Source: Bullera alba | Taxonomy: Eukaryota > Basidiomycota > Tremellomycetes > Tremellales > Bulleraceae | Direction: 5' to 3' | DNA: 64,000 nt | Assembly: GCA_001600095.1 (NCBI GenBank) | Contig: BCIX01000006.1 | Coordinates: forward strand, 372,001-436,000 | Part shown: piece by piece, positions 2,960-51,249 of the stretch | How the letters are laid out: the number at the start of each line of letters is the position of its first letter | Numbering within the stretch: position 1 is the first letter of the stretch | Notes under the pieces: model-generated | What the model saw: only the letters and a program-made list of their open reading frames with translations | Databases searched by the model: none | What the model was told of the DNA's origin: nothing | Translations under genes and position numbers: made by a program

Positions 2960-3745
2960 TGCGCGTAATGAGTATGATTGAGAGTTGTGAGGAAGGATGT
3001 TTGTATTGATCAGACAGGACGTAGAATCACAGATTCAACGGTTCGTCGGACAAAGGGAGGGTTTGAGGGTTGAGTCGATTGATCTATCTTCTTGGAAAGA
3101 GTGTGGTGGTCACTGAGTCTACTGCCAGAGTATCCGAGCGCCGAGGGAGATAGGTCGAGGGTGTGAGGAGGTGCAAAGCTGAGTCGTGAATGGGATGCGA
3201 GGATGAAGGAGGTTCCAAGACGCGTTCTGTTCTATCTTTGGGTGTGCGCAAAAGGGAGGGGAGTGTGCTCTGCTAAATTTGATTCCGCTCTCTCCTACCG
3301 CTGACGTTTCAGAAGATGGCTGGTCGTTCTTTTTCTTCTTTCACCGTCGCCTCTTTGTTCGTCCAAGCCGCATGCAGCAACTCGGACCAGCGACGCATAA
3401 GACGACCACTGCTACCGCCACGAAAGGTGTGGTTCGCTGCTCCGCGAGCTTTGACCAAAGGTGTGGCGCCGACGCACAGTTCACCACAGTCAACGCCATC
3501 CTTTCGCTTCGATCAGCTATCGCCTCGAAAGGAGCAACCGCTGTACGACTACATTGGTCTCCGCTTCTGCCCGTGATATGGTGCAGACACTACTGAAGTC
3601 AAGTATAGAGGTCGTGTGGATGTTCTGCTCTCTCTCTCATCTGATGGAACGGAGCGGTGACGATACCCGATACCACTCAGACACCTTGGCCCATCACAAC
3701 TTGGCACCATCCGTCGATCTTCCACCTAACGAGTCGACTCGCAAA
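2960..3745. other. Divergent promoter region between lyase and A1
   Basis: About 790 bp with no supported gene. Open frames here, including the upstream extension of the A1 frame from 3461, lack paralogue support. Presumably it holds promoters for both flanking genes; I saw no clear TATA box. Confidence 0.5.
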
Positions 3746-4579
3746 ATGACGTCCGGGCGACGGACTTCCGTACGCACATTAGGACACCCTAAGAGCGAGC
3801 TAGAGCAGCTCGTCAAGCACATCCCTTTCGAGTTCCAGGTAACCTACCACCCCGATGCAAGCGAGAGGTTCGCATCAACTCTATCATCTCGCCGCAAGGA
3901 TGATATGGCCAATTACTGGGACAGACTATCCCCATGGTCAAAGAGTATTGTCGACGAGGATCGTCACAGTGTCTTGCTCAAGGTAGCCACGAGGGCTAAA
4001 CACAAGGATAGCACTAAGCATTCTGCATTAGCTGATACAAATGCAGATGACGGCGATGTGCCCGCTGATTACACCTGGTCTATCACTTTCACCCCTCCCA
4101 GATACGGCAACCATGACAGCGACTTAGCTCGCTTCTTGGCTAGTCATCAGGAGGATCATGTCGTTTTCGCGGATTGGTATGACTCCCGCTCAGAAATCGT
4201 CACCGACGTGAGCGGAGAGATCAGCGATGAGGTATCCGAGGAAGGCATGGTCCGAGTACGGCCTCAACCGAAATCGCTGGGTCCCAGACAGTCTTGGACA
4301 GCGTGCTGGATGGAGACCCCTCCCGGAACTTGGCTCGCGTACTCTATCGACTCGGAAACCGGCAGACAAAACACAACTAGCGAGTTTGACCAGTTGGATT
4401 TTCCTGCAGAATGTTACATCCGCCTTACCGCGTCCACCGCCTCTGAAGCAGAATATCAAATGGGTACTTTGGCGCCTCCGCAGGATACTGTCTCACTCAT
4501 GAGGGGGATACGGTCGAGAAGCGAAGTCGGGCTTCCGGCGATAGAAGAGGAAGATCCTTCGGATGATACGGTGTGCTGA
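3746..4579 (+). CDS. Tandem family A member A1, unknown function
   Basis: I do not recognise this protein from any described family. It is 277 residues if started at the ATG at 3746 (context CAAAATG); the frame stays open upstream to 3461, so a longer form is possible. It shares the array core: YTWSITFTPP (strand ending in Pro), a polar helix DSDLARFLASHQ, HVVFADWYD, then PPGTWLAYS and AECYIRLT near the end. Its closest match by eye is A9 (YSWSVSITP, VPGIWSAAS, AECHVRLT), so the two ends of the array resemble each other. There is no signal peptide or membrane segment and no intron. The protein is acidic and hydrophilic. Confidence 0.75.
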   Translation: MTSGRRTSVRTLGHPKSELEQLVKHIPFEFQVTYHPDASERFASTLSSRRKDDMANYWDRLSPWSKSIVDEDRHSVLLKVATRAKHKDSTKHSALADTNADDGDVPADYTWSITFTPPRYGNHDSDLARFLASHQEDHVVFADWYDSRSEIVTDVSGEISDEVSEEGMVRVRPQPKSLGPRQSWTACWMETPPGTWLAYSIDSETGRQNTTSEFDQLDFPAECYIRLTASTASEAEYQMGTLAPPQDTVSLMRGIRSRSEVGLPAIEEEDPSDDTVC

Positions 4580-4964
4580 ATTTTACTGACTCTCTCGCTT
4601 TATCTGGTCTTTCATTCTGAGCAAACCCTGTGCCGTGGTTTCACATGCATCGTGCAGTCGACGGCCTCTGATCAATGCTGATCCTTCCGCGTGCAAACGT
4701 CGCTGCAGATGATCGTCATCAGACGTTCAGATTCACAGCTTTGTCCACCATCGACCTAAGCCTCGATCCTCACGCCGCGCCTTTGACTCGAACGATCCTG
4801 TCGCTATCTGTCAGCTCACCTCGCCATCGCGTCACGCCCAAGCCAATAGCTCCTCCGCTCTCATCTCTCGCCTACTGGACTATCTGCCCGAGAGCCCTGC
4901 TTCGTCGCCTTCCCTTCTCACCCTCTTCCCTTCGCGGGAGGTTGGCGCTAGGAGTGAGGTATCG

Positions 4965-4980
4965 GTGTAACGCGTTACAC
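4965..4980. promoter_or_regulatory. Perfect 16-bp palindrome upstream of A2
   Basis: GTGTAACGCGTTACAC is perfectly self-complementary and lies 279 bp before the A2 start. Its centre, ACGCGT, equals the MCB core bound by MBF-type cell-cycle factors in yeasts; use of that site here is inference only. A diverged copy occurs at the matching place before A3. Confidence 0.5.
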
Positions 4981-5160
4981 GGTACACCCGATAGCTTCGA
5001 CGGACACCTCGTTTTCCACGCCACCCCGAGCTGGAACGCGACTGACGCTGGAAGGACACGCCGGGTGGACCAGACCACGTAGTGACACAAAGGGTCTGAA
5101 AATTTCAATAGACTTCCTCTTTCAGGCTCTTGGGGAAGACCGCCGAGGACTCGCGAGGCA

Positions 5161-5166
5161 TATAAC
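5161..5166 (+). promoter_or_regulatory. TATA box of A2
   Basis: TATAAC lies 98 bp before the A2 ATG, exactly the spacing of the matching TATAAC before A3. Confidence 0.55.
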
Positions 5167-5258
5167 GGCTTTCCTCGCTGCCTATCAAAGTCCCCGACCT
5201 ACGAGTAAGTCTTACTATATTCCCTCTATCGTCTGCCCCTACATCAAACCCACTCGCC

Positions 5259-5861
5259 ATGCCCCTCATTCAACTAGATGTCAATTCGGGGGAGTTGACC
5301 GAAGTGCCCATCACGGAGATTGCGATCCACCCTGCGGCAACCAGGTCGGCTCAACACATGACCGAGCCTGGGACTTGGTACCCCTTCGAAACACTCAGGT
5401 TCTCGTACGATGGATCTCGACCGACCAGAACTGACTCTATCGACAAGGAGGATGAGAAGAGGGAGGTTCCAGATTGGGACAAGAAATCCCGCCGAACGTT
5501 TGTTCTCGACGATGTCAAACCGATGCACAGAGGGAAACAATTCCCTGGATCACCGATCAGAGTCGTGACGGTCACTCCGCCTCAGTGGTGCAACGAGACC
5601 ACCAAGGAAAGCGAAATGTTTGAACAAGAGGAGGAAGGTGTACACCTCACTTTCACTCCAGATGACCCCGACGATGTGACCAACATCTTGCTCAAGCTTG
5701 CAGAAGAGACCTCGACTGCAAGTTGTGACCTAAGTGTCGGTGATGTCCTCGGCATATGGCGCATGTCTAACTTTCCCGACTCTGACGATCCGGATGAGGC
5801 GCAAGAAGTGGAAGGTCGGGCATACTTCTACGGCCGCACCGAGACACCTACAGTGATCTAA
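5259..5861 (+). CDS. Tandem family A member A2, unknown function
   Basis: Intronless gene for 200 residues, no known domain recognised. It starts MPLIQLDVNSGELTEVPITE. The middle carries a charged segment (DKEDEKREVPDWDKKSRR) and then the family core: RVVTVTPPQW (strand ending in Pro), a helix, GVHLTFTPDDPDD, DVLGIWRMSN in the place of the G-T-W block, and a terminal strand GRAYFYG. It is the near-duplicate of A3. By hand alignment I count about 12 differences in the first 111 residues but about 34 in the last 89. The start is supported by the identical MPLIQLD start of A3. No targeting signal is seen. Confidence 0.8.
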   Translation: MPLIQLDVNSGELTEVPITEIAIHPAATRSAQHMTEPGTWYPFETLRFSYDGSRPTRTDSIDKEDEKREVPDWDKKSRRTFVLDDVKPMHRGKQFPGSPIRVVTVTPPQWCNETTKESEMFEQEEEGVHLTFTPDDPDDVTNILLKLAEETSTASCDLSVGDVLGIWRMSNFPDSDDPDEAQEVEGRAYFYGRTETPTVI

Positions 5862-6367
5862 ATGACGATCTGGACTTGGAAGCGTCGACACTTCAGCGGA
5901 GAATGGGTAGTGGTCAATGGTGCATTATTGATGAGTTATGAATGATGATGAGATGACTTGTTTTGTGATGGCGCTGACCACCTATCCAAGATCAAGATGC
6001 CGAGTTACTGACAGCGATCTGGTCTTGCTGCGAGACTGAGAACTGCAACTCACCATCGCCTCATCACGTCTTTCCAAGAGATCAAAGCTCAAACGCTGTG
6101 TCTCTTCGCCTTCTGCTTAACGTGATCATGCTCAGGCCTGATAAGCTCTTCCACTGTTGACCTGTCTGCTCGAGCCTTACGCCGCACCTCTTACCCGTAC
6201 GATCGTTTGGCCATCCATCTCACGTCGCCGTTCTCGCTCGTCCAAGCCAACAACCCCTCCGCTTCCCGCCCTCGCCCTCCTGGCCTATCTCGCCCAGAGT
6301 CTTTCCTCAGTAGCCTCGCTCCCCGCCCTTCTTTTCTTGCGTTGACGACGCTGGGAGCTGAGTGCTC

Positions 6368-6383
6368 GTGTAACACGTTACAT
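6368..6383. promoter_or_regulatory. Diverged copy of the A2 palindrome
   Basis: GTGTAACACGTTACAT differs from the perfect palindrome before A2 at two positions and sits 301 bp before the A3 start. The central ACGCGT is lost. Confidence 0.4.
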
Positions 6384-6585
6384 ATTTTAGCAATGGCTTC
6401 GCTGAATGCCCATCACCCTCCTTTCACATGCCACGAACGAAAGGGTGAGAGCGGTGTGCGCCAGAAGGTCGCGACCCGAGCTAGGTGGGCAAGACCATGC
6501 ACATTTACAAAGGGTGTCAGAACCTCAGCTCACTGTCTCTCGCAGACCTCTGTCTCAGGGAAGGCGGTCGAGGCCTCGCGGGGGA

Positions 6586-6591
6586 TATAAC
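6586..6591 (+). promoter_or_regulatory. TATA box of A3
   Basis: TATAAC 98 bp before the A3 ATG, same spacing and flanks (CGCG upstream) as for A2. Confidence 0.55.
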
Positions 6592-6683
6592 CGCTCTTCT
6601 CGCCGCCGAGAGGTCACTCAAGCCATCGATACAGAAATTACTCTTTTAGTCTATCGTCTACTCCTACTCGAAAACCATTCGCC

Positions 6684-7286
6684 ATGCCTCTCATTCAACT
6701 TGATGACAATTCGGAAACATGGACCGAAATGCCCATCACGGAGATTGCTATTCACCCTGCGGCATCCAGGTCGGCTCAGCACATGACCGAGCCTGGGACT
6801 TGGTACCCCTTCGAACCACTCAGGTTCTCATACGATGGATCTCGACCGACCAGAACTGACTCTATCGACAAGGAGGATGAGAAGAGGGATGTTCCAGACT
6901 GGGACAAGAAATCCCGACGAACGTTTGTTCTCGAAGATGTCAAATTGGTGCACAGAGGGAAACAATTCCCTGGGTCACCAATCACCGTCGTGACGGTCAC
7001 TCCGCCTCAGTGGTGCCAGGAAAGCACCGAGGAATGCGAAATGTTCCAAAACGACGAACCAGGTATAACCCTCACTTTCACGCCAACTTCCCCGAAAGAT
7101 GTGATCAGCACACTGCTCAAACTCGCACAAGAGACGTCGGCTGCGAACTGCAACCTGAGCGTCGGAGAGGTCTTCGGCACGTGGCATATGTCTAACTTTC
7201 CTGGCTCTAATGACCCGAACGAGGTGGAAGAAGCGGGAGGCTCGGCATACTTTTACGGTCGTACCGAGACGCCTGCATCGATCTGA
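6684..7286 (+). CDS. Tandem family A member A3, unknown function
   Basis: Intronless, 200 residues, same length as A2. Start MPLIQLDDNSETWTEMPITE; core TVVTVTPPQW, GITLTFTPTSPKD, VFGTWHMSN, SAYFYG. A3 keeps the G-T-W residues where A2 has G-I-W, so the A3 form is nearer the array consensus. Up to the codons for PPQWC the two genes are nearly identical in DNA, and beyond that point they diverge sharply while the stop codon and 3' flank remain alignable. This looks like gene conversion of the 5' part after an older duplication. Function unknown. Confidence 0.8.
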   Translation: MPLIQLDDNSETWTEMPITEIAIHPAASRSAQHMTEPGTWYPFEPLRFSYDGSRPTRTDSIDKEDEKRDVPDWDKKSRRTFVLEDVKLVHRGKQFPGSPITVVTVTPPQWCQESTEECEMFQNDEPGITLTFTPTSPKDVISTLLKLAQETSAANCNLSVGEVFGTWHMSNFPGSNDPNEVEEAGGSAYFYGRTETPASI

Positions 7287-8155
7287 GCGGCGATCTGGGG
7301 ATGAAAATGTTGACAGTTCAGCGGAAGATGAGTACGAGTAGTGTTTAGGGGCGCAGGAGGGTGGATAATGAAAAATGAACGATGATTGATGATGATGAGA
7401 CGACTCGCCTGTGGATGGCGCTGACCACCTACTGAACATCAAGACGCCGAGTCAATCTTACTGATAGCGATCTGGTATCGTCGATCAGTAACACTACTCC
7501 CCATCATACCATCGGCCCTCGGGTGAGCGTCTGTCCAAGATCTCAAACGCTAAGCTAAAAGTTGACTCAAGTTCGACTAATTCACCCTCCCTTTCCCCCG
7601 CTCCGCATGATCTCCCCTTGACTACCACCTGATGGCTCGTCGCTCACCGCCTGGCATTTGCTACATGTCACACATTGATCAATTCACACCTTTGTCAGAG
7701 ATCCCGGGTGGAGACGGCCAGCGAGATGAAACGGTGCAGAGCTCAGTCCACGCTTCTGCCTCCGAGAGACCAAAGGACGGTCGGACCAGACGTGTTTCAC
7801 CAACAGAGTGATAAGAGAGCAGCTGCTTCATTCCTCGGTCGGACGTCTCTCAGCTGAGCTTTGTCGAACTCCAGAAGATCACCCTTTCTTCGACTTGACT
7901 CTTGAAACTTCTGTACACTCAGCTCAACTGCTACGAGCCCGCCCGTGTAGTGCACTCACTCTACATGCGAAAATCCCCGGACATTCAAGTGGATATAAAA
8001 CCAAACTTGCCGGCTTGGTAATCGCTGATTCTTCCTATGCCTGCTTTAGGAATCTATATCTGTCTCACAGCCACCGTACCGCTGATCTTTTCGCCTACAC
8101 GCTGCACATCAGTCATTACACTGTTGCACTCCGCCAGCCATGCTCGACAATCGAC
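7287..8155. other. Spacer between A3 and A4
   Basis: Non-coding. The A4 frame is open upstream to 7808, but the residues there have no paralogue counterpart and a TATA box lies inside that stretch. Confidence 0.55.
7994..8000 (+). promoter_or_regulatory. TATA box of A4
   Basis: TATAAAA 162 bp before the chosen A4 start. It argues against the longer open frame that begins upstream of it. Confidence 0.45.
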
Positions 8156-8890
8156 ATGACTGAGAGCATCGCATCCGCCGGCGCTGAAGGGGATCCCGAT
8201 TCGTATGACGAGATCGCCAGGATGTTCGCGGGCGATGACTTGACCGAACAACCACCAGTCGACTCCAATTCACTCGAGGTCGGCATGTCGACCCTCACTC
8301 AAGACGGATTCCCGACGCTCAACTTCAACGGGGCCATCATCATGTTCCACAACCCACCGTCCTCCCTTGCCTCTGAAGAAGAAGAAGAAGGAGAAGCGGA
8401 CATGAGTGACTGGGACTTCCAATCTCCCTGGGCTTGCAGGGTCAATCTACTCCATGACGGCTCTACAGCACTGGACTTCTCCCTTCGGCGCTTGGGTACA
8501 ATCACGCTCACTCCTCAACCACCCAGCGAGCGAACGTCCGACGAAAGTCACTTCTTCGAGGCTCTTGACTCCTGCCATGCGTTGACCTTCCTGCCTACGG
8601 ACTGGCAAACTGTACAGTCAGCCTTGAAAGATTTCGCCAATGACCACACCAGAGACGACTTCAACCCATCAGACGTTTCCGGTACCTGGTACAAGTGGCG
8701 TCAGGACACTGGTCAGGAGTACGAGGAGCTGGAAGCTGACGCTGAGATCCACTTCCGCCCTGACGAGTCTGGCGAGCAGACTTCCCGTAAACGTGCTCAT
8801 TCCTCTCCACCCCTTCAGGAGGCTGAGACAGGGGACCGGGTCAAGAGGATGAGACTTGGGTCAGAGGAGTCAGAAGACCAAAGGGCTTGA
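8156..8890 (+). CDS. Tandem family A member A4, unknown function
   Basis: Intronless, 244 residues from the ATG at 8156 (MTESIASAGAEGDPDSYDE). A Glu run (SEEEEEGEADMSDWD) is followed by the family core: RRLGTITLTPQPP, a helix with SHFFEALDSC, HALTFLPTDW, DVSGTWYKWR and DAEIHFRPD. Unlike A2/A3 it carries a basic C-terminal tail (RKRAHSSPP ... RVKRMRLG) resembling a bipartite nuclear localisation signal; A7 has a similar tail. Nuclear location is inference. The aromatic and Pro landmarks match A1, A7 and A9 better than A5/A6. Confidence 0.75.
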   Translation: MTESIASAGAEGDPDSYDEIARMFAGDDLTEQPPVDSNSLEVGMSTLTQDGFPTLNFNGAIIMFHNPPSSLASEEEEEGEADMSDWDFQSPWACRVNLLHDGSTALDFSLRRLGTITLTPQPPSERTSDESHFFEALDSCHALTFLPTDWQTVQSALKDFANDHTRDDFNPSDVSGTWYKWRQDTGQEYEELEADAEIHFRPDESGEQTSRKRAHSSPPLQEAETGDRVKRMRLGSEESEDQRA

Positions 8891-8918
8891 CCTGTAGATA
8901 GTCAGTACTATCATGGTG

Positions 8919-8962
8919 GCAGTCTAGCAGTCTAGCAGTCTAGCAGTCTAGCAGTCTAGCAG
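8919..8962. repeat. 8-bp minisatellite-like tandem repeat
   Basis: The unit GCAGTCTA is repeated about 5.5 times without mismatch, starting about 30 bp after the A4 stop codon, so it lies in or near its 3' UTR. Confidence 0.95.
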
Positions 8963-9108
8963 AGTGCGATGGAAATGGTGTGGGCAGTGGGAGGCGAGGA
9001 TTCAAGCTCCAAGCTTCAAGTGACGAGTGAACGGCTTGAGCGGAGGGGTCGACGACTGGTCAAGGCTGAAGTTATGAGGGAGGGGAAAGCCGATCTGATT
9101 CTGAGGTC

Positions 9109-9124
9109 CTCGTTTGACGTCATG
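9109..9124. promoter_or_regulatory. TGACGTCA (CRE-like) site upstream of A5
   Basis: CTCGTTTGACGTCATG contains the 8-bp palindrome TGACGTCA at 9115..9122. The identical 16-mer occurs upstream of A6. TGACGTCA is the classical CRE/ATF bZIP site; use of it here is inference. Confidence 0.5.
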
Positions 9125-9677
9125 AGCGCTACAGCGCTACGTCATTCCTCCTCATGGATCCTGAGCGCTGAGCTGTGAAGCTAAAGGACTGCAGCGGTCT
9201 TCTTTCACGAGTTCAGCTCGGGATCCGAGTGGGGCTAGCGACCGGACTCCACTGAAAGGAGAGCACACTGGTTTGTGACGTGTGTCACATTGCCATTGTC
9301 TAACGTGTCTGAAGGATCATGACCTCCTACGCGCCTTCCTACGCAATGAGAAGAGACGAAGGGAGCAAGGGTTTAAGGAGCGCGCACGGGCAGAGGCTGA
9401 CTCCCTGAGTCCCTGCGCTGCCTGCGACTCCGAGAGCACAACCTTTCAAGGTGCTAGGGAGTGGGGAGTAGGGACAAAGGCAGAATGAGAGTCAAGTTTC
9501 GTCTCTGAGAGAGGTGAGCACTGGGGCATATACGTCACTGACTGGTGCATAAGAGCTTGGGGTAGGGTCACTCACAGACATTTCTTCCCCATCCACTCGG
9601 TGCCGATTCAGCCAGACTTGACATCCTTGCCTATTCACTCGACGACGGAAGCACGTATCTCGACGCATCAAACGAAC

Positions 9678-10349
9678 ATGGCAAGCCCCACGCCAAGCAA
9701 TGAAGACACAGAAGTTTGGACTGACTATGATCGTCATGACCCCGAGGGGGGTCTCGAGACTCTCGACGACCTGTTTGCGACTGACCAAGGCTACGATAAG
9801 TGGGTTGTCCTCAATGGGACTAAGAAGGAGAAGGAGAACATCATGGAATATCGAAGGAACCCGGAGATTGGGACCGTCGACCTCGAAGACCCGTCAGCTC
9901 CCCAATGGGTTGCCGAGCTGACGCCTTGTCTACACGAACAAACGGAGGCACAGGTAAAGTTCTTCCTGGACTGTACCTTAGCCGAGACGGAGCATGTCAT
10001 CTTCCAGCCGACCGGGCGTTCCGACATCGCTTGGACTGGCCGAGGTCTTATCGGCTCTCACCTGACTTTGAGCAGACTCGCCGCTTCAAGTCCAACCAAG
10101 GTCTCCCATGGAACAGAGGAGGGCGAAGCTCGAGACACGTACACCTATACTCTGGGGGCGATTTCCGTTGCGGGTACGTGGATGGTCGCAAAGCGGGAGT
10201 GGGACGAAGGGCAGGAGAGATATATGTACGAGCCTGTCTTCCCAGACCTGAACACCGAGGGGTCAGCCGAATTCAACCTCAGTCTCATTGTGAAGGACAA
10301 GGAGGCATTTGAGCGAGCTCTTCACACCGAAAAGGAGACCGAGGCTTAG
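9678..10349 (+). CDS. Tandem family A member A5, unknown function
   Basis: Intronless, 223 residues, start MASPTPSNEDTEVWTDYDRH at 9678. It contains a block shared with A6 near the N-terminus (LDDLFATDQGYDKWVVLNGT) and the family core in the order QWVAELTP, helix QVKFFLDCTLAE, HVIFQPTGRSDIAWTGRG, YTYTLGAISVAGTWMVAKRE and AEFNLSLIV, ending in a charged helix KEAFERALHTEKE. A5 and A6 form the second clear recent pair of the array. No signal peptide, no membrane segment. Function unknown. Confidence 0.8.
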   Translation: MASPTPSNEDTEVWTDYDRHDPEGGLETLDDLFATDQGYDKWVVLNGTKKEKENIMEYRRNPEIGTVDLEDPSAPQWVAELTPCLHEQTEAQVKFFLDCTLAETEHVIFQPTGRSDIAWTGRGLIGSHLTLSRLAASSPTKVSHGTEEGEARDTYTYTLGAISVAGTWMVAKREWDEGQERYMYEPVFPDLNTEGSAEFNLSLIVKDKEAFERALHTEKETEA

Positions 10350-11362
10350 TGAATCGCCCAGAGGTGGGCTGGTCAGTAAAGACTAGAGACCGCAGATGGC
10401 TTCTTTATGGACCTGAACGTTAACGAGAGAGATGGAGAGTCGAGAGTGAAACGATGGACATGCAAACCTGCCTGAAAATTGACACTGACATCAGACACAC
10501 TGACTCAGTGGCAGTACTGCCTCTTGAAGACTGGAGTTGACAATTTGACAGTTGACATCACACTATTGACTACTGGTGTTTCCCGGGTCGTACCGTCAAT
10601 CGTGAGCCAAGCACCACGCTGAGTGTCAGACCTGTGCTGACTGTACCTCTCCGAATTGAGATTCAGAAATCTGGCCATGGTCCACCATAGCCGGTGCTGC
10701 CAGCTGGGTAGCGTATAGCGTGTACAGGCTGACTGCTGAGCGGCCGAAGCCAAACCAAAGTCCCCAGAGTGCTCGATCTCAAATTCGATCACTTCGAAAA
10801 GGACCTCGATCATCAAGCCAGGTTCCGGCCGGTACAGACCTTTGCGAGGTAACTCGGGAAGGCGATAGACAGATGAGGGCTCGATGAGTCAGCGAGTCCG
10901 GCTTCTCGTTTGACGTCATGGGAACGAAGGCGAGCAACGTTCTTTTGACTTGGTGGCCTTGAGGCTCGGGCCAAGGCGGCAACCTGAAGAGGCTGAATGG
11001 AGAGGCGGAGGGACTTGACGTCGAAACGTTCACATGTTCCCATGCACTACGGCCGAAGGCGAGAAGGTGAACGGCGAAGAAGTCATAAGACACCCTCGAT
11101 TGCTGCTGTCAGAAGGCCGCGGAGAAGATCCTTTGGAGACGAAGACGCCTGACGCATAGGAACATGTCAGAGATCACATTTTTCGGATGGGTTTCGAGTT
11201 CGACTTTCGCCGTTGGTGGACACATCGGATGTGTATAAGATGTTATGTTCGCGTGGACTGGAACCCATTTTCTTCCACCACACGACAAATAGCACCCACC
11301 CAGCCAAACGCCCTAGCACAGAGCTAACAAACCCGAACGCAGAGAAGGCAGCATCGACCAAT
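10350..11362. other. Spacer between A5 and A6
   Basis: About 1 kb, non-coding, with the second copy of the TGACGTCA-containing 16-mer. No other feature seen. Confidence 0.55.
10905..10920. promoter_or_regulatory. TGACGTCA (CRE-like) site upstream of A6
   Basis: CTCGTTTGACGTCATG, identical over 16 bp to the site before A5; palindrome at 10911..10918, about 450 bp before the A6 start. Confidence 0.5.
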
Positions 11363-12004
11363 ATGTCAGCCTATGACCTTGAGAAAGCTCGAGTGACCGT
11401 GGACGACCTCTTTGCAACCCTCGACGGCTACGACGACTATGTGGTCCTCAAAGCGACTGATGCGGAGACCATGAGCGGACTCACTGAATACCGAAGGGAG
11501 GCCGAGGCCGACATGTGGCCAATCAGCTCGGAGCCAGGCTGTCCACAATGGGAGGCAGATCTGATGCCTCGTGACCCCAGCCAAATGAGCGCCAAACAAG
11601 CTCAGCTACAGACGCAGTTCTTCCAGGATCGAACATCGGCCGAGGCGCTCTATGTCATTTTCCAGCCCACCGGGCGATCTGATGTGTCGTGGAAGGGGCG
11701 AGATCTTCTCGGCACTGATCTGACTTTGAGCAAAGTTGTTGGCGAAGGCCCTACTGCAGAGTCTCGCGACACGATTGACGGCGAGGACCGACCCATTTAC
11801 ACTTACACTCTGGGGCCAATCTCCGTGGAGGGTACGTGGATGGTCGCAGAAAGAAAGCCAGACGACGAGGGAAACTTCTACTTTGAGCCTTGCATGGAAG
11901 ACTGCGACGTCAAGGGGGCCGCCGAGTCCAACCTCAATCTGATCGTGGCGGACCAGAAGGCGTTCGAACAAGCTCTTAGAGCTGAGAAGGAATCTAGCTC
12001 CTAG
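11363..12004 (+). CDS. Tandem family A member A6, unknown function
   Basis: Intronless, 213 residues from ATG 11363 (MSAYDLEKARVTVDDLFATL); a TATAAG lies 129 bp upstream. The frame is open further upstream, but A5 aligns only from here. Core: DDLFATLDGYDDYVVLKATD, CPQWEADLMP, helix QLQTQFFQDRTSAE, YVIFQPTGRSDVSWKGRD, YTYTLGPISVEGTWMVAER, AESNLNLIV and a terminal charged helix (KAFEQALRAEKE). It is about half identical to A5 by eye, with the best match in the FQPTGRSD and GTWMVA blocks. Function unknown. Confidence 0.8.
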   Translation: MSAYDLEKARVTVDDLFATLDGYDDYVVLKATDAETMSGLTEYRREAEADMWPISSEPGCPQWEADLMPRDPSQMSAKQAQLQTQFFQDRTSAEALYVIFQPTGRSDVSWKGRDLLGTDLTLSKVVGEGPTAESRDTIDGEDRPIYTYTLGPISVEGTWMVAERKPDDEGNFYFEPCMEDCDVKGAAESNLNLIVADQKAFEQALRAEKESSS

Positions 12005-12894
12005 TGATCCGCCTAGGGGAGGACGGAGGCCCGGAGGAGGGTTCATCATGAGACATGGTAGCTTCGGGCTAGGGAACGCAGGAGAGGATTTGCTCATTTG
12101 TCGCTATGAGTAATTGAGATGAGGATCGGGGATATAGATAGGGGACGAGTGCGACTGGCCGAGGCAGAGGGATGCATCAGTGAAAACTTGACATCGGGGG
12201 CAATGGGACTACGCAGCTGTTCCGGCCCGCGCCAAGAAGAAAAGATGCTGGGGAATCTCAGCTGAGCCTCAGAATCAGATTCACTTGAAATCTGTCGTGT
12301 CACTCGTGATCCACGCCCGTTGCCTAATAGTAGAATCGAACAGGAGACCAACACGTAGTGATTCTCTTGGAGTAACGGTGACCACTGGGTGTCGCAGCTT
12401 TGGTTGAGTTGAGCAGAAGAGAGACCGTATTTGCAGGTAGACTCGACATGAGTATTGACGATGAGGTAGGAATCGGGCGGTTGAGGCAGCGGGCTGTGGG
12501 ATGCATTGGTGGAATTGGAAATTGACTCCAAAGCCATGCGGCATACAAGAGCGCGTGGTGTCCACCTCAGCGGGGTGCTGATCGACCTGATCAGTGAGAA
12601 AGCAGCCGCAACCAAGCTCCCAGTGTGGCATAACAGTCCAAGCGTTCCTCCACCGCCGCGTTTCATCGGATCATTCGAATGACCATATGGCAAAGGATGT
12701 CTGAGACTTGGCTTGAGATCTCCGTGATTCTGACGCGCATCGATGACGACGTTGGCGAGGTTGAACCCTTCATGACTTTGTGGATCAAAGGAGACGTGAA
12801 GTGCAGCATGTCAGTGAATCAAGTATAAAACTCTTGAAAGATTCGCCGTCAAGGAGAGCTGCTGAACACCACTCACTCATCCTCATTCGACAGA
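12005..12894. other. Spacer between A6 and A7
   Basis: Non-coding as far as I can see. A long minus-strand frame here (12094..12693) lacks family motifs or protein-like composition and was rejected. Confidence 0.5.
12824..12830 (+). promoter_or_regulatory. TATA box of A7
   Basis: TATAAAA 71 bp before the A7 ATG. Confidence 0.5.
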
Positions 12895-13755
12895 ATGTCA
12901 GACTCCACAGCCACTGCTGCCGTTGTTCCCTCCATCGGCGATCTATATTCCTGCGCCGACGCACTCTTCGATGTCCCTGATCACAAGATCCACTTGCCAT
13001 ACCATGCGGTTGTCGCCCAAGCCGACGAAGAGGAAAGCCAGTCGGTCGGGTCGTTCGGATCCATTTCCGAGCCCGGAGACATGTACAATGTCCATCGGGG
13101 TGCCAAATACTCTGTGAACGGGGAGATCAGTGATAACGCTGAATCCAACTTCAGGGTCGGTCAGCCCAACTGCACTTGGAAAGTCACGATCACTCCCCGA
13201 TCCGGAGACTCTCAATCCAAGGATGAAAAGGCGTTCTTTGATGCCGCCGGAGATCGGGAGCTTCTATTCAGTCCTGCCGTGTCCGAAGGCTGGAACGGCT
13301 CGGAGCCGTTTGCAGGCTTGACCATGAACGACTTCCAGCCCCGTCCAATGGAAGATGGGTACGTGACAGATTACCGCGAGGACAGTGCCGGCTTGGAGGA
13401 AGACAACACCGAAAATCAAGAGGCTACCAACGAGGACCTCTACAACCCTTACCAATCAGGGTATACCACGGTGAGGACAGAAGAGATCGTCGGCCGTTGG
13501 GGAGTGACAGGTGGTACCGTAGTGTGCGATGGCGCGGCCAATCTGCACGCTAGACTCAGCGTTTTAGGTCCTTCTGTACCGCTCCTCGAACGGTCCACCT
13601 CGACGTCCAACATGCCCAAAAGGGCTCTCGGGGGATCTGAATCCCCGGAGAACGAGCCCCGCCCCCAGGCGAAGCAGCAGAGGATCACCGACGACGATGA
13701 CGGGTCTACTTTGAAGCTGCCTGAGATGAGGGGGACAAACTCACTCCTGGGCTAG
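12895..13755 (+). CDS. Tandem family A member A7, unknown function
   Basis: Intronless, 286 residues (start MSDSTATAAVVPSIGDLYSC). Core: CTWKVTITPRSGDSQSKDEK (strand, Pro, then the Gln-Ser-Lys helix start also found in A9), helix AFFDAAGD, RELLFSPAVSEGW, a long acidic insertion (EEDNTENQEATNEDLY), EEIVGRWGVTG in place of the G-T-W block, and AANLHARLSV. After the core comes a Ser/Pro-rich tail with basic clusters (MPKRALGGSESP, KQQRI) like A4. The G-R-W variant and the long insertion make it one of the more diverged members. Function unknown. Confidence 0.75.
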   Translation: MSDSTATAAVVPSIGDLYSCADALFDVPDHKIHLPYHAVVAQADEEESQSVGSFGSISEPGDMYNVHRGAKYSVNGEISDNAESNFRVGQPNCTWKVTITPRSGDSQSKDEKAFFDAAGDRELLFSPAVSEGWNGSEPFAGLTMNDFQPRPMEDGYVTDYREDSAGLEEDNTENQEATNEDLYNPYQSGYTTVRTEEIVGRWGVTGGTVVCDGAANLHARLSVLGPSVPLLERSTSTSNMPKRALGGSESPENEPRPQAKQQRITDDDDGSTLKLPEMRGTNSLLG

Positions 13756-15237
13756 CGATGCTGAGGGAGGACCAGTCTAGACCATGGTAGTCGAGCGGGG
13801 AGGCCTAAGATCAAGATGCATGATCTCTCTTGTCTGATAACCCGAAACCGTCCATCTTCGCGTAGGTACAGAGGCGTCTGGCCGCAGCTTCGCAGTGATC
13901 GCAAGCTGTGGCGTCGTTCGTCAGGGATAGAGCACTTCAGTTGGATACAGTATTCGATGTTGACCGCGCCTCCAGATGAAGCTCGTCGTCCACGCGTCCA
14001 CGGCTGGGACAATGTGAAAGCGACTCACCTCTCCGAGGCTCTCTCCCGATTATCGGCCATCGTGTTCAGCGATCCTCAGGTCCTGACTGGTGGGCGTCTC
14101 GGGATCAGCGGCCTCCCTTGATGCGAGCCCGTGTGCTGTCCAATTCTGTCCAACACCAAGTAAGGGTCACAAGTATACACAATACAGTACACATTGTTCC
14201 AGCGTTAGTCCCAGCTTCAAATCAGTTTCCTGGTCTCCTACGACCTACGGCCGTATGTAGGCCCGCACTCGATCGATCGGCTTCCTGCAACTTGCGCGTA
14301 CACGGTCGACGCAATAAGTAGAACTCTTCCCTCTGCGACGGGGTCTTGCCGAGGTCTTGCGACTCTGCGCAAACTCTGCGAGGGTCTCGTTGATACCCAT
14401 TTGATACCTATTACTCCTGTTGCTCCAACCTCATCCTAACTACCACGAGCTGGCGACGTCACGGACCGTTGGACGCTTGAATATCATCGCTCACTACCTC
14501 CGGCTGTTATCATTCTGGTCACAGCCTCGCGAACGCTTCTCTTTCCGTTGGGAATTCGAAGAGGAGAAAGACAGCTGGACGGCCTAAGCTTCGAGGATAC
14601 GAAGCTGACGGGTCCGCGGCCATGCAGATTTCTCACAAGTCTGGGGATCACGATAGTCCCCCATGGTGAGCTTCGCACCTGGAACGATGAAACATAGGAT
14701 CCACGGAGGCTGGGCCTGGAGGACCACCACGTGTTCGCAGCTTCACGTGAATGAGAACCGTGCAGACTCGGAGTGTATCAGTGAGTTGCGATGTGCGGTC
14801 TGCGCAGTTCACTGCAGATACATATTTTTCTTCTCGTCCCAGATTGATGCTCTTCTAGATCAGCTCATTTGTTCCGGCGAGCGTCACTTGCAATCCATGT
14901 CCAGTATCAGTCTCCCGGCCCTCGTGTTATTTGGTATTGTCGAGGTGTGAGAGCACTCTCTGCTCGCCATTTAGATTGCGGGAGTAGGCGTGAGCTGGAC
15001 ACCTCGTCAACTTTCAATATCTGACGACCTTATCTTACCATTGCGCTCACCTCCCTTGATGACATATTCTTCATCCGTAGTCCGCCTACGCTATCGGCCT
15101 TCCACGGACATCAGCTAGAACAAGGGTTCGAAGATAAGAAATGTGGAGCGATACTTATATAGGGCATGTTGTTGCCACCACCTGGCTCCTCCCACATACC
15201 CTTCGTGATTCGTACGCTAACGCACTGAGAGCTAACA
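13756..15237. other. 1.5-kb spacer between A7 and A8
   Basis: No supported gene. The frames here are short and carry none of the family landmarks. The gap is about twice the usual A-array spacing, so a lost copy could lie here, but I find no recognisable remnant. Confidence 0.45.
15156..15162 (+). promoter_or_regulatory. TATA box of A8
   Basis: TATATAG 82 bp before the A8 ATG. Confidence 0.45.
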
Positions 15238-16176
15238 ATGACAGACACCACGCCTGCATTATCCAACATGGGCGAGCAAGACAAGCAGACTACGATCCTT
15301 TTGCGAACGCAAACACTAGCCAATACCGAGTTGGCAACTGCCTTCAATGATCTAGTCCCCCTGGGCTCCGGCTGGGCCGTCGACTATAGTGACCGCCTAA
15401 AGTCATTCCAAGGGACAACAACTTCGAAGAAGAGGGTGGGCCGTATGGCAAGTGAAAAGATGGACGTGGTTCTACCCCGAACTTTGACATCCAAAGACTG
15501 GGACGGGATGTACGCTTGGTACTTGACAGTCAACTTGCCCCGACAGAGATCCGATACTTTCAACCAGAACCTCCGGGAGACCGCTCGCGAAGGGGCCAGT
15601 GTTATTTTCGAGCCAAATTCCGATGCCTGGACGAAATACGACGAGTTTACGGATCAGATAGTCACCGACGAGTCGAACGTATCGGCTGAACCGGCCAATG
15701 CCCAGAGTAAGCTCAACCTGGACTACTGTATCTACGACATGGGTCAACAAGACGAGAAAACCGGACGAGTCACTCGAAGTTGGCCTGTGACGCTATCTGG
15801 GACTTGGGTCGAGGCCGCAAAGCTCAAACCCGCGGACGAAGGCGATGTCGAGATCAAGGAGGATTCGGACATGTCGAAGGTCAGCCTTGGAGAAGAGGAC
15901 ACACCTACTGATCACGAAGCCCTGGTGCGCATTTCTCTCGTGGCGATGAAAGCGCCCAAGGAGATCAGCGATGCAGTGTCCGAGAGGAACGCAACGCTCG
16001 CAGCCGTCAGAGCTGCGGTTGCAGGGAGCGAATCGACTCCATCTAGTCCCGCTAGTGCCCCTACCACCCGAGCCCCTGCTAGGTCCCGGGCAGCACTGCT
16101 GGCAAGAATGTCGACCAGAGGGAGCTCGCTCAGAAATACGACGAGTATCGATGATGAGGAAAACACCGAGACTTGA
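15238..16176 (+). CDS. Tandem family A member A8, unknown function
   Basis: Intronless, 312 residues, the longest member. Start MTDTTPALSNMGEQDKQTTI. Core: YAWYLTVNLPRQRSDTFNQN (the strand ends in L-P instead of T-P), helix NLRETAREG, ASVIFEPNSDAWTKYDEF, WPVTLSGTWVEAAKL and HEALVRISLVAM. A Ser/Ala/Arg-rich tail of about 70 residues (SPASAPTTRAPARSRAALLA) follows the core, ending in an acidic stretch. The tail looks disordered. No targeting signal or membrane helix. Function unknown. Confidence 0.75.
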   Translation: MTDTTPALSNMGEQDKQTTILLRTQTLANTELATAFNDLVPLGSGWAVDYSDRLKSFQGTTTSKKRVGRMASEKMDVVLPRTLTSKDWDGMYAWYLTVNLPRQRSDTFNQNLRETAREGASVIFEPNSDAWTKYDEFTDQIVTDESNVSAEPANAQSKLNLDYCIYDMGQQDEKTGRVTRSWPVTLSGTWVEAAKLKPADEGDVEIKEDSDMSKVSLGEEDTPTDHEALVRISLVAMKAPKEISDAVSERNATLAAVRAAVAGSESTPSSPASAPTTRAPARSRAALLARMSTRGSSLRNTTSIDDEENTET

Positions 16177-16670
16177 GCTGGGTAAGTCATTTCTCTGAAT
16201 TGATAATTCCTCGGTCTTACGTTTCTACGAGGATGAGCATGGATGTCGTTCACATGCATCAGCCGGAGCTGCATCCTGTTCTTGGCTTGTCTAAGATATT
16301 GGAACCCATAGTGCTGTGATCTGAGATAACTCCTTCGCCTTCTTCCCGCGCAACCTCAGCTCGCAGTATTGGTGGTTGATACGCGTATCGGTGTATGACG
16401 CACGTTTAGCAATCCTTTGTCTTGTCAGGCGTTTCAGTGAAAGCATCCAAGAGGTCATTTACCCCGTGTATCGTACAGACTTAGTCTAGATATCAGCATT
16501 AGAAGTCTGGCTCGCTAAATTCGATCGTTACACCTCATGGCTCTTGAGTCATCACACCCGAGTCGAAGATACTTAGAGCTCCGAGACCGGATCAAAGTTC
16601 AAACACTACTCAACTCATCCACTGAACAGCCCTTATCCCTCGAATTCCCTCCTGTTCAACTCACTAAAAG
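16177..16670. other. Spacer between A8 and A9
   Basis: Non-coding; nothing recognised. Confidence 0.5.
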
Positions 16671-17435
16671 ATGTACGTACGCACTGCTCAGACTGCCGAA
16701 CGCGACATTGATGATAAGAGCGATCATCTCTTTGCGACGGATTCCCAAGATCGATTTACGGTGTCCTTCGATCCCGTCAGAGCGAGTCGCGCCGCCTGGT
16801 TGACCGAAGACGAACTCAATGAGGATCTGGATGTCTACTCGCCATGGCTATACACCTCCTCGTGCACCTACAATGGGCATCAGAGTCACAACTTAAACCC
16901 ACTCCACCCAACATTGGATCACGATGCGATCGCATCAACTCCGTACTCCTGGTCCGTCTCTATCACCCCCGCAATCCCCAACGGGCAGTCAAAAGAACTG
17001 AGAGACTTGCTTGAGTCTGCGGAAGGCAATTCGGATGTCAAATTCCTCCCGGAAGACTGGAACGACATTAAAGACTTCACCATGATGCCTGACCTAAGCG
17101 AACAGAATCTTTCTTCGACAAATGGACAAAACGGTGAAAAAAGGCGGTACGGGGTGTTCAAAGTCCACTCTGATCCAGGTAAAGCGACTAGGTCTGTGGC
17201 CTGGACCCAGATCGTACCTGGCATTTGGTCAGCAGCCTCTGATATCAATGGCGACCACTCTGTCAAAGACGATGCAGAATGTCACGTCCGACTGACAGTT
17301 CCTGACACCGACACGGCAGGTCAGTCGCCGCGATCGCCGACGTCGATGAAGAGTTACAGACACAGGCAGAACTCCAGGAAGGACTCCTTGGTTCCCACAC
17401 TTTGTTCATCACCAATCGAGGAGCTGAGCGAGTAG
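16671..17435 (+). CDS. Tandem family A member A9, unknown function
   Basis: Intronless, 254 residues, last gene of the array and convergent with ATM1. Start MYVRTAQTAERDIDDKSDHL. It has an N-terminal DHLFATDSQDRF that recalls the DDLFAT block of A5/A6. Core: YSWSVSITPAIPNGQSKEL, helix RDLLESAEG, DVKFLPEDWNDIKDF, WTQIVPGIWSAASD, AECHVRLTVP, then a Ser/Arg-rich tail. It links the A1-like and A5/A6-like members, supporting common descent of all nine. Function unknown. Confidence 0.78.
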   Translation: MYVRTAQTAERDIDDKSDHLFATDSQDRFTVSFDPVRASRAAWLTEDELNEDLDVYSPWLYTSSCTYNGHQSHNLNPLHPTLDHDAIASTPYSWSVSITPAIPNGQSKELRDLLESAEGNSDVKFLPEDWNDIKDFTMMPDLSEQNLSSTNGQNGEKRRYGVFKVHSDPGKATRSVAWTQIVPGIWSAASDINGDHSVKDDAECHVRLTVPDTDTAGQSPRSPTSMKSYRHRQNSRKDSLVPTLCSSPIEELSE

Positions 17436-36639: not shown

Positions 36640-38102
36640 TGCTGACGTATCGATCGTTTAGATCTCAATTGTATGGTTGGGCAGCGTTTATTGGATCCAA
36701 TGGATGGCTCTTTGGCGTTTATTCACCACACGACTTGATTAAATCCTTTTCACAGTTGACCACGGCTGTCGACAAAGTGTGGGACCTTGCGAGTGAACAA
36801 ACGAGGTGTGTGAACAAAATCACAAGATCACCTGGCCGGGTAGACCGATAACAACTGATAAAGCAAAGTGTTAAAGCCCCCGTGAGACAAACCGACAAAC
36901 TGAAACCGGTACCCACGACTGCCCTTGCCGACCTGGAGGACAAAGGATTTCGGGTATCCAAAGGGAAGGCAAAACAAGGGGTGGGAAAATGCCCCGGATC
37001 CTAAGGGGTGGTGTGCAGTCGGAAGTTTGGACCCGGTCTGGGCGGTGTCTTCACTGTCGGATGGCGGATGAGATGCTCTACTTGGCCAACATAGCAAGAG
37101 CTTTCAGCTAGAGGCAGTCTGTGATGGTGAGCAGTCACCGCCCAGGCGCTTGCGGTCGCCGCGACGGACTGGCGATACTGACTTGACTTGACAGTTGTTT
37201 CTCCCCCACTCTTTGCGGCCTGAGATCCGTTCGGAATCGACTCCGTGCGCCAGCGTGGGACCTGTAAGCAGGTACAGAGGATCGACATGCTACTACACGT
37301 GTGAACTGGCCGTACCTATGACACTGATGATCACCTCGGGACAAGGGTGAAGGTCGCGAAAGGAGTCGTGGGAACGTGAGAATATAACCAGAGGGAGGCG
37401 TTTCACGGTGCCAAATTGTCAGTGTTGTTTGGCATGTACTCACGGCCAGTGTCGATCACTGATGCCACCGCAGCCAAGACCCTGCTCGGAGTCAGATGGG
37501 GAGACGACGGCGCTTTGCGCTTCAGTATACACTCATATCACATCTGGAAGGTGATCGAGCGAAGGCTAAAGAAGCCTTCTGATATGATTACTGATGTCGC
37601 CTTAGGTCTTCTACATGGGCTCATGCACGAAGTACGAGCTTCAAGTTTGGGGGCCATTCATCAGCGAACGATACCACTTACTCTACTCTTCCACTCCAGC
37701 TATGGGACGAAGCCGCCCGGTGACGTATTCGAAACAATAACTCACGGGTATGTTGTATCAACTCCTCTCACACTGCAACGCGAAGGCTGGAGACCCCTCG
37801 TGCAACATCATTTGGGACGTCATCTAGCCATAGGGAAGGCTAGATCGATGGGGAGTCGGGGCACAAAGGATCATCATGTCCAAACATGCTTCACAGACCA
37901 TGATATGTCCTTCTCATCGAATTGCTCGTATCTCCGCTGGCGATGCCACTCGCTGCTCCGTATGTTAGGGGTGGATGGGGCCAAACCCCATTTGATCTCT
38001 TTTCCCCAACAACAGCTCACTACACATCACGAATACATATCTCGCCAGCGCTCCATTGTCAAGCTTCCAAACCTCACTCAATATCTCTTGCCACCTCTCG
38101 CA
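36640..38102. other. 1.5-kb spacer before P1
   Basis: No supported gene. The P1 frame runs open upstream to 37416, but that extension has no counterpart in P2-P4 and no convincing composition. Confidence 0.45.
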
Positions 38103-38408
38103 ATGACCAGTAGTACTGCATCAGCTGCGCGTAGTACTCCATCAGCTGTACGTACCCGGGAGCAACTGACCTCGGACTTCAAAGATGTGGACGGGTTGCC
38201 CGAAGGAGGTGAAGATAACGTCGACAAGCCTGCCCTTGCCCATCTTCTCCTTCAGGAAATGTCCCACGCATCAACGGAACAAGGACGAAAGTTCACCAAG
38301 GGGTCGGTCGACAAACTCTGCTCGATGTGGGGTGCGACCAACCTGAGTGAGGTGGATGGAGTCGGCAACATCAACATTTCAGACGACGGCGAGGCAATTG
38401 ACGGTTGA
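38103..38408 (+). CDS. Small tandem family P member P1, unknown function
   Basis: Intronless, 101 residues, start MTSSTASAARSTPSAVRTRE. The most diverged of four small paralogues. Alignment landmarks with P2-P4: the Ser/Thr/Ala start, the helix LLLQEMSHAS, GRKFTKGSV (compare GRTFTKASV in P4) and the end NINISDDGEAI (compare DITISDKGEDI in P4). Hydrophilic and acidic, no signal peptide, no Cys pattern. Function unknown. The start at 38103 is chosen because all four paralogues begin with this Ser/Thr/Ala block. Confidence 0.7.
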   Translation: MTSSTASAARSTPSAVRTREQLTSDFKDVDGLPEGGEDNVDKPALAHLLLQEMSHASTEQGRKFTKGSVDKLCSMWGATNLSEVDGVGNINISDDGEAIDG

Positions 38409-50164: not shown

Positions 50165-50881
50165 CTACTCGACTATCACACGTCCCCGCTTGCACAACTG
50201 CCTCGCCTCCAACTCGGTGATCGTGCTTTGAGCACTCTCCAACTCGGTCTTCAACCCCTTCACCTGGGTAGCCGCCTGCTTCAAAGCCGTTTGACTGGTT
50301 TCATACTTCTTCCGCCAATGGTCACAGTCCGTACTCAGCTGGGCGTAATCCCTGCTGACCAATTTCAGCACGTCGAGCAAACTACAAATCCGGGCAGGTT
50401 ATATGTCAGCTATCCATCGTTCTGCCCCTTGAACCCATCAACACACTCACTCTTCGGCGGTCAAAGCGGCTTCAGATGCTGCTTGTCCAAGCCATGTCCC
50501 AGCACTGGCCACTGTGGCCTTGCGTGCTGGAGACAGGGTCGACACGAACGACTCTTTGCTCGCCATACTGGTCAAAGCCTCCACGGCGTCCTTCGCTTCT
50601 TGACTCCCTCTGTCCTTGGACCACGAGAAGGCTTTATTGGTTAAGACATCGAACGGCCCCTTTGCAGACAGAGCAGTCTCGTCGTCGACGTTCCTTCCCC
50701 TGATCAGGGCGTCGTGCAGGATTCGCAAACTGGCCTTGGCAATAGCACTGCTGGCCTGCTCGGTAAATGCGTCCTCGTCGGAAAATTGCTCGACCTGTGA
50801 GTCAGTTTCTTCGCCGGTGAAAGTTGTGTCCGTGGTGAGAGCGCTAGGAGCAGTAGCCAAGACGCTGGTGATGTCAGCCAT
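50165..50881 (-). CDS. Unknown helical protein with C-terminal coiled coil (C3)
   Basis: Not recognised. Exons in transcript order 50881..50451 and 50381..50165 (phase 2) give 215 residues, start MADITSVLATAPSALTTDTT. An acidic N-terminus is followed by a helical region (SLRILHDALIRGRNVDDETA) and, in exon 2, a coiled coil (SQTALKQAATQVKGLKTELE). The same architecture, intron position and phase occur in C1 at 27456..28043. A TATATAA lies about 60 bp before the start. It borders the gene-poor tract and is the last gene before the conserved block on the right. Confidence 0.68.
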
Positions 50882-51249
50882 GGTGTATGGTGCGAGTGGA
50901 AGAAACAGCGGCCAAAAGCGGTGGCGAGGGAGACAACTTATATACCAACTGAAGAGCTGGCCTGCTTGACCCCTTGAAACGCTCGCTGAGCTAAACACAG
51001 ACCGATCAGGCAGCTTATGAAGCCTCCTTTCAGCTCTCAACACCCAACCAATGTCTTCTAATGCCGTCTGACACCCGTTTGACAGCTCTTTCAGCACCAT
51101 CGGCCAACATGCTGCAATCGATTACCGCGGATCGCACCAGATAGCCAGAGCGCTCTTTGTCGATGAGTCGTAATGCATCTTACTAAATCCATTCCAGTCA
51201 GATTGTCCTCAAAATCGTGCTATCGTGATGTACGTGACTAATGCTATCC
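50882..51249. other. Spacer C3 promoter / F-box gene 3' flank
   Basis: About 370 bp; only the TATA box of C3 recognised. Confidence 0.5.
50937..50944 (-). promoter_or_regulatory. TATA box of C3
   Basis: Minus-strand GTATATAAG about 60 bp upstream of the C3 ATG. Confidence 0.45.

What the first reader, a model, noticed from the sequence alone, without database searches (positions are those of the whole stretch)
3746..17435. Nine-gene tandem array of an apparently undescribed protein family (A1-A9)
Nine consecutive, same-strand, intronless genes encode proteins I cannot place in any known family, yet all share the same ordered landmarks: a strand W-x-[VIL]-x-[ILV]-x-P (YTWSITFTP, CTWKVTITP, YSWSVSITP), a short helix, a strand [VIL]-x-F-x-P, a G-[TIR]-W block (VSGTW, VAGTW, VPGIW, IVGRW) and a final alternating strand (AECHVRLT, AEFNLSLI). 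Pairwise similarity ranges from near identity (A2/A3) through clear pairs (A5/A6) to motif-only, which indicates birth-and-death expansion. No signal peptides or membrane segments are seen; A4 and A7 carry basic tails.
Basis: partly seen in the sequence, partly recalled or inferred. Interest (0 to 1): 0.85.

Follow-up and report, generated by a model that had tools for sequence, protein, structure and literature searches.

The report
Orphan nine-gene tandem family in yeast
Nine neighbouring genes in a fungal genome encode one fast-changing family of proteins that we could not match to any known family or fold, so it is a real but functionally unexplained gene cluster.

Summary
Nine same-strand, apparently single-exon genes (window 3746-17435) form one paralogous family. 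Profiles built without a gene's own group recover each of the nine above 292 background ORFs, using the core alone. All genome hits with E below 0.01 lie in this array. No Pfam or NCBIfam model, PDB sequence or fold matches convincingly. Elsewhere only 11 close metagenomic relatives were found. Corrections: A2/A3 are 77% identical, not near-identical; the quoted strand motif is literal only in A7 and A9; A6 probably starts at 11363. New here: six of nine genes have a TATA sequence at the promoter position (0 of 27 spacer pieces do); A2/A3 and A5/A6 show purifying selection, A2/A3 with a gene-conversion-like tract; one relative looks mosaic. AlphaFold models are only moderately confident and identify no fold. 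Best reading: a lineage-restricted set of soluble, intracellular proteins with an alpha/beta core, diversifying by duplication and conversion. A partner- or ligand-binding, inducible role is inferred, not shown. Such orphan families are common in fungi (recalled), so interest is moderate.

The parts
3746..4579 (+). A1, 277 aa; core plus C-terminal tail (an upstream in-frame ATG at 3578 is possible)
   Evidence: ORF; leave-one-out 17.1 bits core-only, 31.0 full length
5259..5861 (+). A2, 200 aa
   Evidence: ORF; 77% to A3; 18.2 bits core-only with its group left out
6684..7286 (+). A3, 200 aa
   Evidence: ORF; 9.1 bits core-only with its group left out; 7.6 full length, below best shuffle 7.9
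8156..8890 (+). A4, 244 aa; basic tail after the core
   Evidence: ORF; 24.4 bits; genome search links it to A2/A3
9678..10349 (+). A5, 223 aa; modelled
   Evidence: ORF; 18.8 bits; model
11363..12004 (+). A6, 213 aa from the likely start (ATG-initiated ORF from 11240)
   Evidence: relative P0006 starts at this Met; 46-50% to A5; 9.8 bits, 1 of 500 shuffles reaches it
12895..13755 (+). A7, 286 aa; basic tail after the core
   Evidence: ORF; 16.0 bits
15238..16176 (+). A8, 312 aa; the longest, with tail
   Evidence: ORF; 14.7 bits
16671..17435 (+). A9, 254 aa; modelled; tail conserved in relatives
   Evidence: ORF; 30.7 bits; relatives 71% and 67-68%; tail 34/43 and 31/43 identical
5161..5165 (+). 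TATA sequence, 98 nt before the A2 start
6586..6590 (+). TATA sequence, 98 nt before the A3 start
7994..8000 (+). TATA sequence, 162 nt before the A4 start
11234..11238 (+). TATA sequence, 129 nt before the likely A6 start
12824..12830 (+). TATA sequence, 71 nt before the A7 start
15156..15162 (+). TATA sequence, 82 nt before the A8 start
9115..9122 (.). TGACGTCA (CRE-like, name recalled) 563 nt before A5
   Evidence: only two copies in the window; shared 16-nt context CTCGTTTGACGTCATG
10911..10918 (.). TGACGTCA (CRE-like, name recalled) 452 nt before A6
5334..5483 (+). A2 codons 26-75, the low-divergence tract shared with A3 6759-6908 (possible gene conversion)
   Evidence: pS 0.12 and 0.07 here against 0.36 in codons 1-25 and 0.25-0.54 in the 3' half; small counts, not tested for significance

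Best explanation
Shown: nine tandem paralogues, single-locus as far as tested, with a common core of about 92-145 residues and variable N-terminal parts and C-terminal tails. The A2/A3 and A5/A6 comparisons show purifying selection. Six of the nine genes have a TATA sequence at the promoter position. Inferred: the proteins are soluble cytosolic or nuclear proteins, each induced from its own promoter under particular conditions. They use the conserved alpha/beta core as a scaffold and the variable segments to bind different partners or ligands. Copies are renewed by tandem duplication and gene conversion, as in stress or conflict gene families. A4 and A7 would act in the nucleus through their basic tails.
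For: Family. Single locus: all nine genes used as queries; every hit below E 0.01 lies in the array; a profile scan of the window plus 100 kb of flanks finds only the nine (next E 0.13). Selection: dN/dS 0.36 for A2/A3 and 0.43 for A5/A6, the latter with dS near 1. Conversion: dS 0.21 in A2/A3 codons 1-100 against 0.57 in codons 101-200; relative P0012 is identical to P0008 at 26 of 61 aligned residues in its first part and 63 of 74 in its last. TATA: 6 of 9 promoter windows, 0 of 27 non-overlapping spacer pieces, 1 of 9 on the opposite strand. Soluble and acidic. Variable strand-helix-strand segment, conserved GTW block: A9 against P0002 and P0003, 19/36 and 22/36 identical at residues 92-127, 34/39 and 35/39 at 173-211.
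Against: No expression data, no recognised fold, no partner and no ligand. dN/dS below 1 in the two pairs tested gives no sign of positive selection averaged over the genes. TATA sequences are a weak basis for inducibility (link recalled), and A1, A5 and A9 lack one. Nuclear targeting rests on reading the tails by eye. Apart from TATA, no upstream 8-10-mer is shared by more of the nine than in random sets of window pieces. The genome searches are insensitive: the A1 and A9 queries found none of the other eight members at E up to 10, so dispersed distant members could be missed.
Confidence: 0.35

Rival explanations
1. The array is a polymorphic self/non-self or conflict locus (allorecognition, toxin-antidote or anti-parasite), whose copies differ between strains because diversity is selected.
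For: P0001 (one substitution from A9) and P0011 (78% to A6) each list one contig with longest length 36,113 bases, so one near-relative may carry an almost unchanged A9 beside a very different A6-type gene. The A2-type relative P0012 looks mosaic.
Against: That contig could not be read; that both lie on the same contig is inferred from its length; P0011 may simply be another paralogue. dN/dS is below 1 in both pairs. No Pfam domain was found.
Confidence: 0.2
2. The family is a highly diverged branch of a known ligand-binding or scaffold fold that these tools cannot recognise, with an ordinary housekeeping or metabolic role.
For: Models are only pLDDT 52.5 and 66.5, so a known fold can be missed; the strand-helix-strand-helix then sheet order is common (recalled).
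Confidence: 0.35
3. The genes are unconventionally secreted effectors acting on other organisms.
For: Small, fast-evolving, clustered, apparently single-exon genes.
Against: No signal peptide by hydropathy, few cysteines (1-3 each), strongly acidic; basic tails on A4 and A7.
Confidence: 0.07
4. The ORFs derive from a virus or mobile element.
For: Apparently single-exon, clustered, no distant cellular relatives found.
Against: No relative in IMG/VR for A9, the only member scanned; no convincing PHROGs match (best E 0.019, each hit in 1 of 19 members); no viral fold match with E at or below 0.001 for the A5 model.
Confidence: 0.03

Closest known systems
Lineage-restricted, fast-evolving tandem gene families of fungi (general kind; recalled)
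   Same: Head-to-tail paralogues at one locus, wide divergence range, recombination between neighbours, no recognised domain.
   Different: Soluble, acidic, without the signal peptides or membrane segments usual in effector or surface families (recalled); function unknown.
Pfam DUF6109 (PF19604)
   Same: Weak hit of A5 only, residues 122-177 (E 0.0033, 16.5 bits).
   Different: Below its cut-off of 25 bits, 56 of 671 profile positions, and only 1 of 19 members scanned matches; treated as chance.
wtf poison-antidote drivers of Schizosaccharomyces (recalled)
   Same: Multicopy, fast-evolving, recombining family with mosaic members.
   Different: wtf proteins are recalled to be membrane proteins from intron-containing genes; these are soluble by hydropathy and apparently single-exon. 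No sequence test was made.

Membership tests
One paralogous family A1-A9 | Each member recovered by a profile of the other groups above background and shuffles | tested here: met
   core-only: nine of nine above 292 background ORFs; 0 of 500 shuffles reach the score, except 1 of 500 for A6. full length: A3 just below the best shuffle, the other eight above.
One paralogous family A1-A9 | Common three-dimensional fold | tested here: inconclusive
   A9 and A5 models place the landmarks on the same order of elements, but confidence is low to medium and the input alignments overlap; seven members not modelled.
Any Pfam or NCBIfam family | Score above curated cut-off | tested here: not met
   Searches (nine members, Pfam; 19 sequences; A6 represented by its near-identical relative P0006): no member reaches a cut-off. 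Weak Pfam hits: DUF6109 (A5), Pyocin_S (A3; 1 of 19), GYD (long form of A6).
Any PHROGs family | Strong or consistent hits across members | tested here: not met
   four families, each in 1 of 19 members, best E 0.019.
Known solved fold | Significant structural match covering the core | tested here: inconclusive
Secreted effector family | Signal peptide | tested here: not met
   Hydropathy only.
Allorecognition or conflict locus | High allelic or copy-number diversity between strains under balancing selection | not testable with these tools
   Only an indirect hint from the shared contig length of P0001 and P0011.

The most novel reading that the evidence does not exclude
The array is a previously undescribed protein fold serving as a strain-variable recognition or conflict locus of a tremellomycete yeast. 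A conserved scaffold (FxP, GTW, final strand) carries a recombining, variable strand-helix-strand segment and tails that determine specificity, and haplotypes differ in copy content.
Probability: 0.12. Interest if true: 0.75.

Novelty: new member of a known kind. Interest (0 to 1): 0.4.

Why it matters
It defines a testable orphan protein family with a robust core signature, nine natural variants at one locus and close relatives in metagenomes. If the locus varies between strains as the contig hint suggests, it would be an entry point to recognition or conflict biology in basidiomycete yeasts, where few such loci are known (recalled). If not, it is still a compact case of orphan-gene birth, tandem expansion and gene conversion.

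Tried and rejected
Dispersed members: a strand-motif DNA pattern gave 16 places genome-wide against 5 for the reversed control; only A7 and A9 lie in family-like frames. The pattern catches 2 of 9 known members, so it is insensitive. The five non-array hits with A4, A7 and A8 (E 0.2-10) get no hit from the family profile at E up to 20.

Fold: Foldseek against PDB for both models and against viral models for A5, and VIA-align for A5, gave no usable match. Top rows (YceI-like, Cyt1A, volvatoxin, tRNA synthetases, chemoreceptor domains) are scattered, with low TM-scores or Z, and were disregarded. VIA-align was not run for A9. PDB sequence profiles: nothing credible (best E 0.31, none up to E 10).

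Shared upstream motif beyond TATA: none above random. The background rate mixes coding and non-coding DNA, so one search used spacer pieces. Third-position G+C is weak evidence of coding: frame +1 is nearly as high.

A tremellomycete is likely because the only organism-named database hit of a window neighbour is a Saitozyma protein, 49% identical. Papers: four searches, titles and abstract beginnings of the listed rows only; none of the listed rows is about this array. No paper was opened, so no claim is made that the family is absent from print.

Full report
Setting. The window is C6:372001-436000 of a 19.4-Mb, seven-contig genome. The array lies between a polysaccharide lyase 14 gene (minus strand) and an ATM1-like ABC transporter gene (minus strand, in several frames, presumably exons; the ATM1 name is recalled), with a polyprenyl synthetase further left. 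A conserved neighbour, an acetyltransferase, has a 96% relative in a metagenome and a 49% relative in Saitozyma sp. JCM 24511, so a tremellomycete yeast is likely but not proven.

Observation. Nine open frames, all on the + strand, occupy 3746-17435 with spacers of about 0.5-1.5 kb. Each holds the set of landmarks in one frame. Their stop-to-stop frames (231-386 residues) exceed the longest (219) in 2000 shuffled 900-nt spacer sequences. Third-position G+C is 0.57-0.66, near the 0.63 of two conserved neighbours, but frame +1 is nearly as high (0.53-0.62), so this adds little.

Family test. Pairwise comparison links only some members (A2/A3 77%, A5/A6 46%, weak A4-A2/A3, A9-A1/A4/A7/A8, A6-A8). 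I therefore built profiles leaving out each of seven groups (nine window proteins, 12 database proteins). In full length the best member of every group scores above all 292 background ORFs and all shuffles; A3 (7.6 bits) and P0012 (2.8, also below background) fall below the best shuffle of their group (7.9), and P0009 (7.6) below 9.5 in its group. With cores only all nine window members score 9.1-30.7 bits against at most 6.0 for background; 0 of 500 own shuffles reach the score except 1 of 500 for A6. Among the relatives P0012 is weakest (3.9 bits, 8 of 500 shuffles, below the best background ORF at 5.4), then P0009 (1 of 500). The family is thus real, and the signal is in the core, not the tails.

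Where else. With each of the nine as query, every match in the own genome with E below 0.01 lies in the array; the five others (E 0.2-10) are unsupported. These searches are insensitive: A1 and A9 as queries found no other member. A full profile over the window and 100 kb of flanks finds only the nine; the next hit has E 0.13. In the 5.8-billion-protein database A9 finds 3 proteins among 228 candidates and the nine-member profile 9 among 5333, at E up to 10. One of the 12 (P0004) is A5 itself; the other 11 are close, from one-substitution variants down to P0012, 62% to A3. The neighbour acetyltransferase used as control finds 7 among 308 at E up to 1e-5, one of them from a named tremellomycete, so the database holds some fungal proteins, but coverage is not known and the control is small. 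One viral scan with A9 found no relative.

Known families and folds. Pfam with 9 and then 19 sequences, NCBIfam and PHROGs with 19, and PDB sequences by profile give nothing above cut-off or consistent across members. AlphaFold models of A9 (17 sequences, pLDDT 52.5, pTM 0.51) and A5 (19 sequences, pLDDT 66.5, pTM 0.58) place the landmarks alike: strand (W..TP), helix, strand (FxP), helix, then strands including the GTW block and the final A-E strand; A5 adds a terminal helix. The two share alignment members, so they are not independent. No structural match is usable. The fold is unidentified; novelty of the fold is not shown.

Evolution. A2/A3 dN/dS is 0.36 and A5/A6 0.43: functional constraint, no sign of gene-wide positive selection; A5/A6 synonymous sites are near saturation. 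In A2/A3 dS is 0.21 in the first 100 codons and 0.57 in the last 100, lowest in codons 26-75 (three synonymous differences), which fits partial gene conversion; I did not test this against chance. P0012 matches P0008 at 26 of 61 aligned residues in its first part and 63 of 74 in its last, a mosaic pattern. P0001 (A9 with one substitution) and P0011 (78% to A6) each report one contig with longest length 36,113; if it is the same contig, one array carries a very different A6-type gene beside an unchanged A9. I could not read that contig. Among A9 relatives P0002 and P0003 the strand-helix-strand segment is variable (19/36, 22/36) and the GTW-to-end block conserved (34/39, 35/39), as is the tail (34/43, 31/43).

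Promoters. A TATA sequence lies 71-162 nt before the start in 6 of 9 genes (A2, A3, A4, A6, A7, A8); none occurs in 27 non-overlapping spacer pieces of the same length, and the opposite strand of the promoter windows has it in 1 of 9. A1, A5 and A9 lack it. TGACGTCA occurs twice in the window, upstream of A5 and A6 in a shared 16-nt context, though the two 400-nt 5' flanks are otherwise diverged (164 of 359 aligned bases identical; context). Two copies of an 8-mer in 64 kb are not by themselves beyond chance.

Mechanism. Shown: one family, single-locus as far as tested, soluble by hydropathy, TATA sequences before six of nine genes, constraint in two gene pairs. Indicated: exchange between copies. 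Inferred: conditional expression, partner or ligand binding by the variable parts on a fixed scaffold, nuclear action of A4 and A7. Confidence in the family is above 0.95; in the full mechanism about 0.35.

Verdict. A real orphan family and a sound first reading with corrected details. Orphan tandem families are a known kind (recalled), so the score is moderate; the hint of strain-variable content is the part most worth following.

Noticed in passing
window 8919-8962: Perfect tandem repeat of GCAGTCTA, 5.5 copies, just after the A4 stop codon.
   Followed up: no
window 9115 and 10911: The only two TGACGTCA sites of the window lie upstream of A5 and A6 in a shared 16-nt context although the flanks are otherwise diverged.
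   Followed up: partly
window 37380-38408 (+) and 50447-51121 (-): Two further long single frames (342 and 224 residues, stop to stop) without a Pfam match at E up to 0.001; neither is among the family-profile hits.
   Followed up: partly
C-terminal tails of A1, A8, A9 (ends of 3746-4579, 15238-16176, 16671-17435): Arginine/serine-rich stretch followed by I-[ED]-[ED] near the end in each; may be a shared short linear motif. Seen by eye in the alignment.
   Followed up: no
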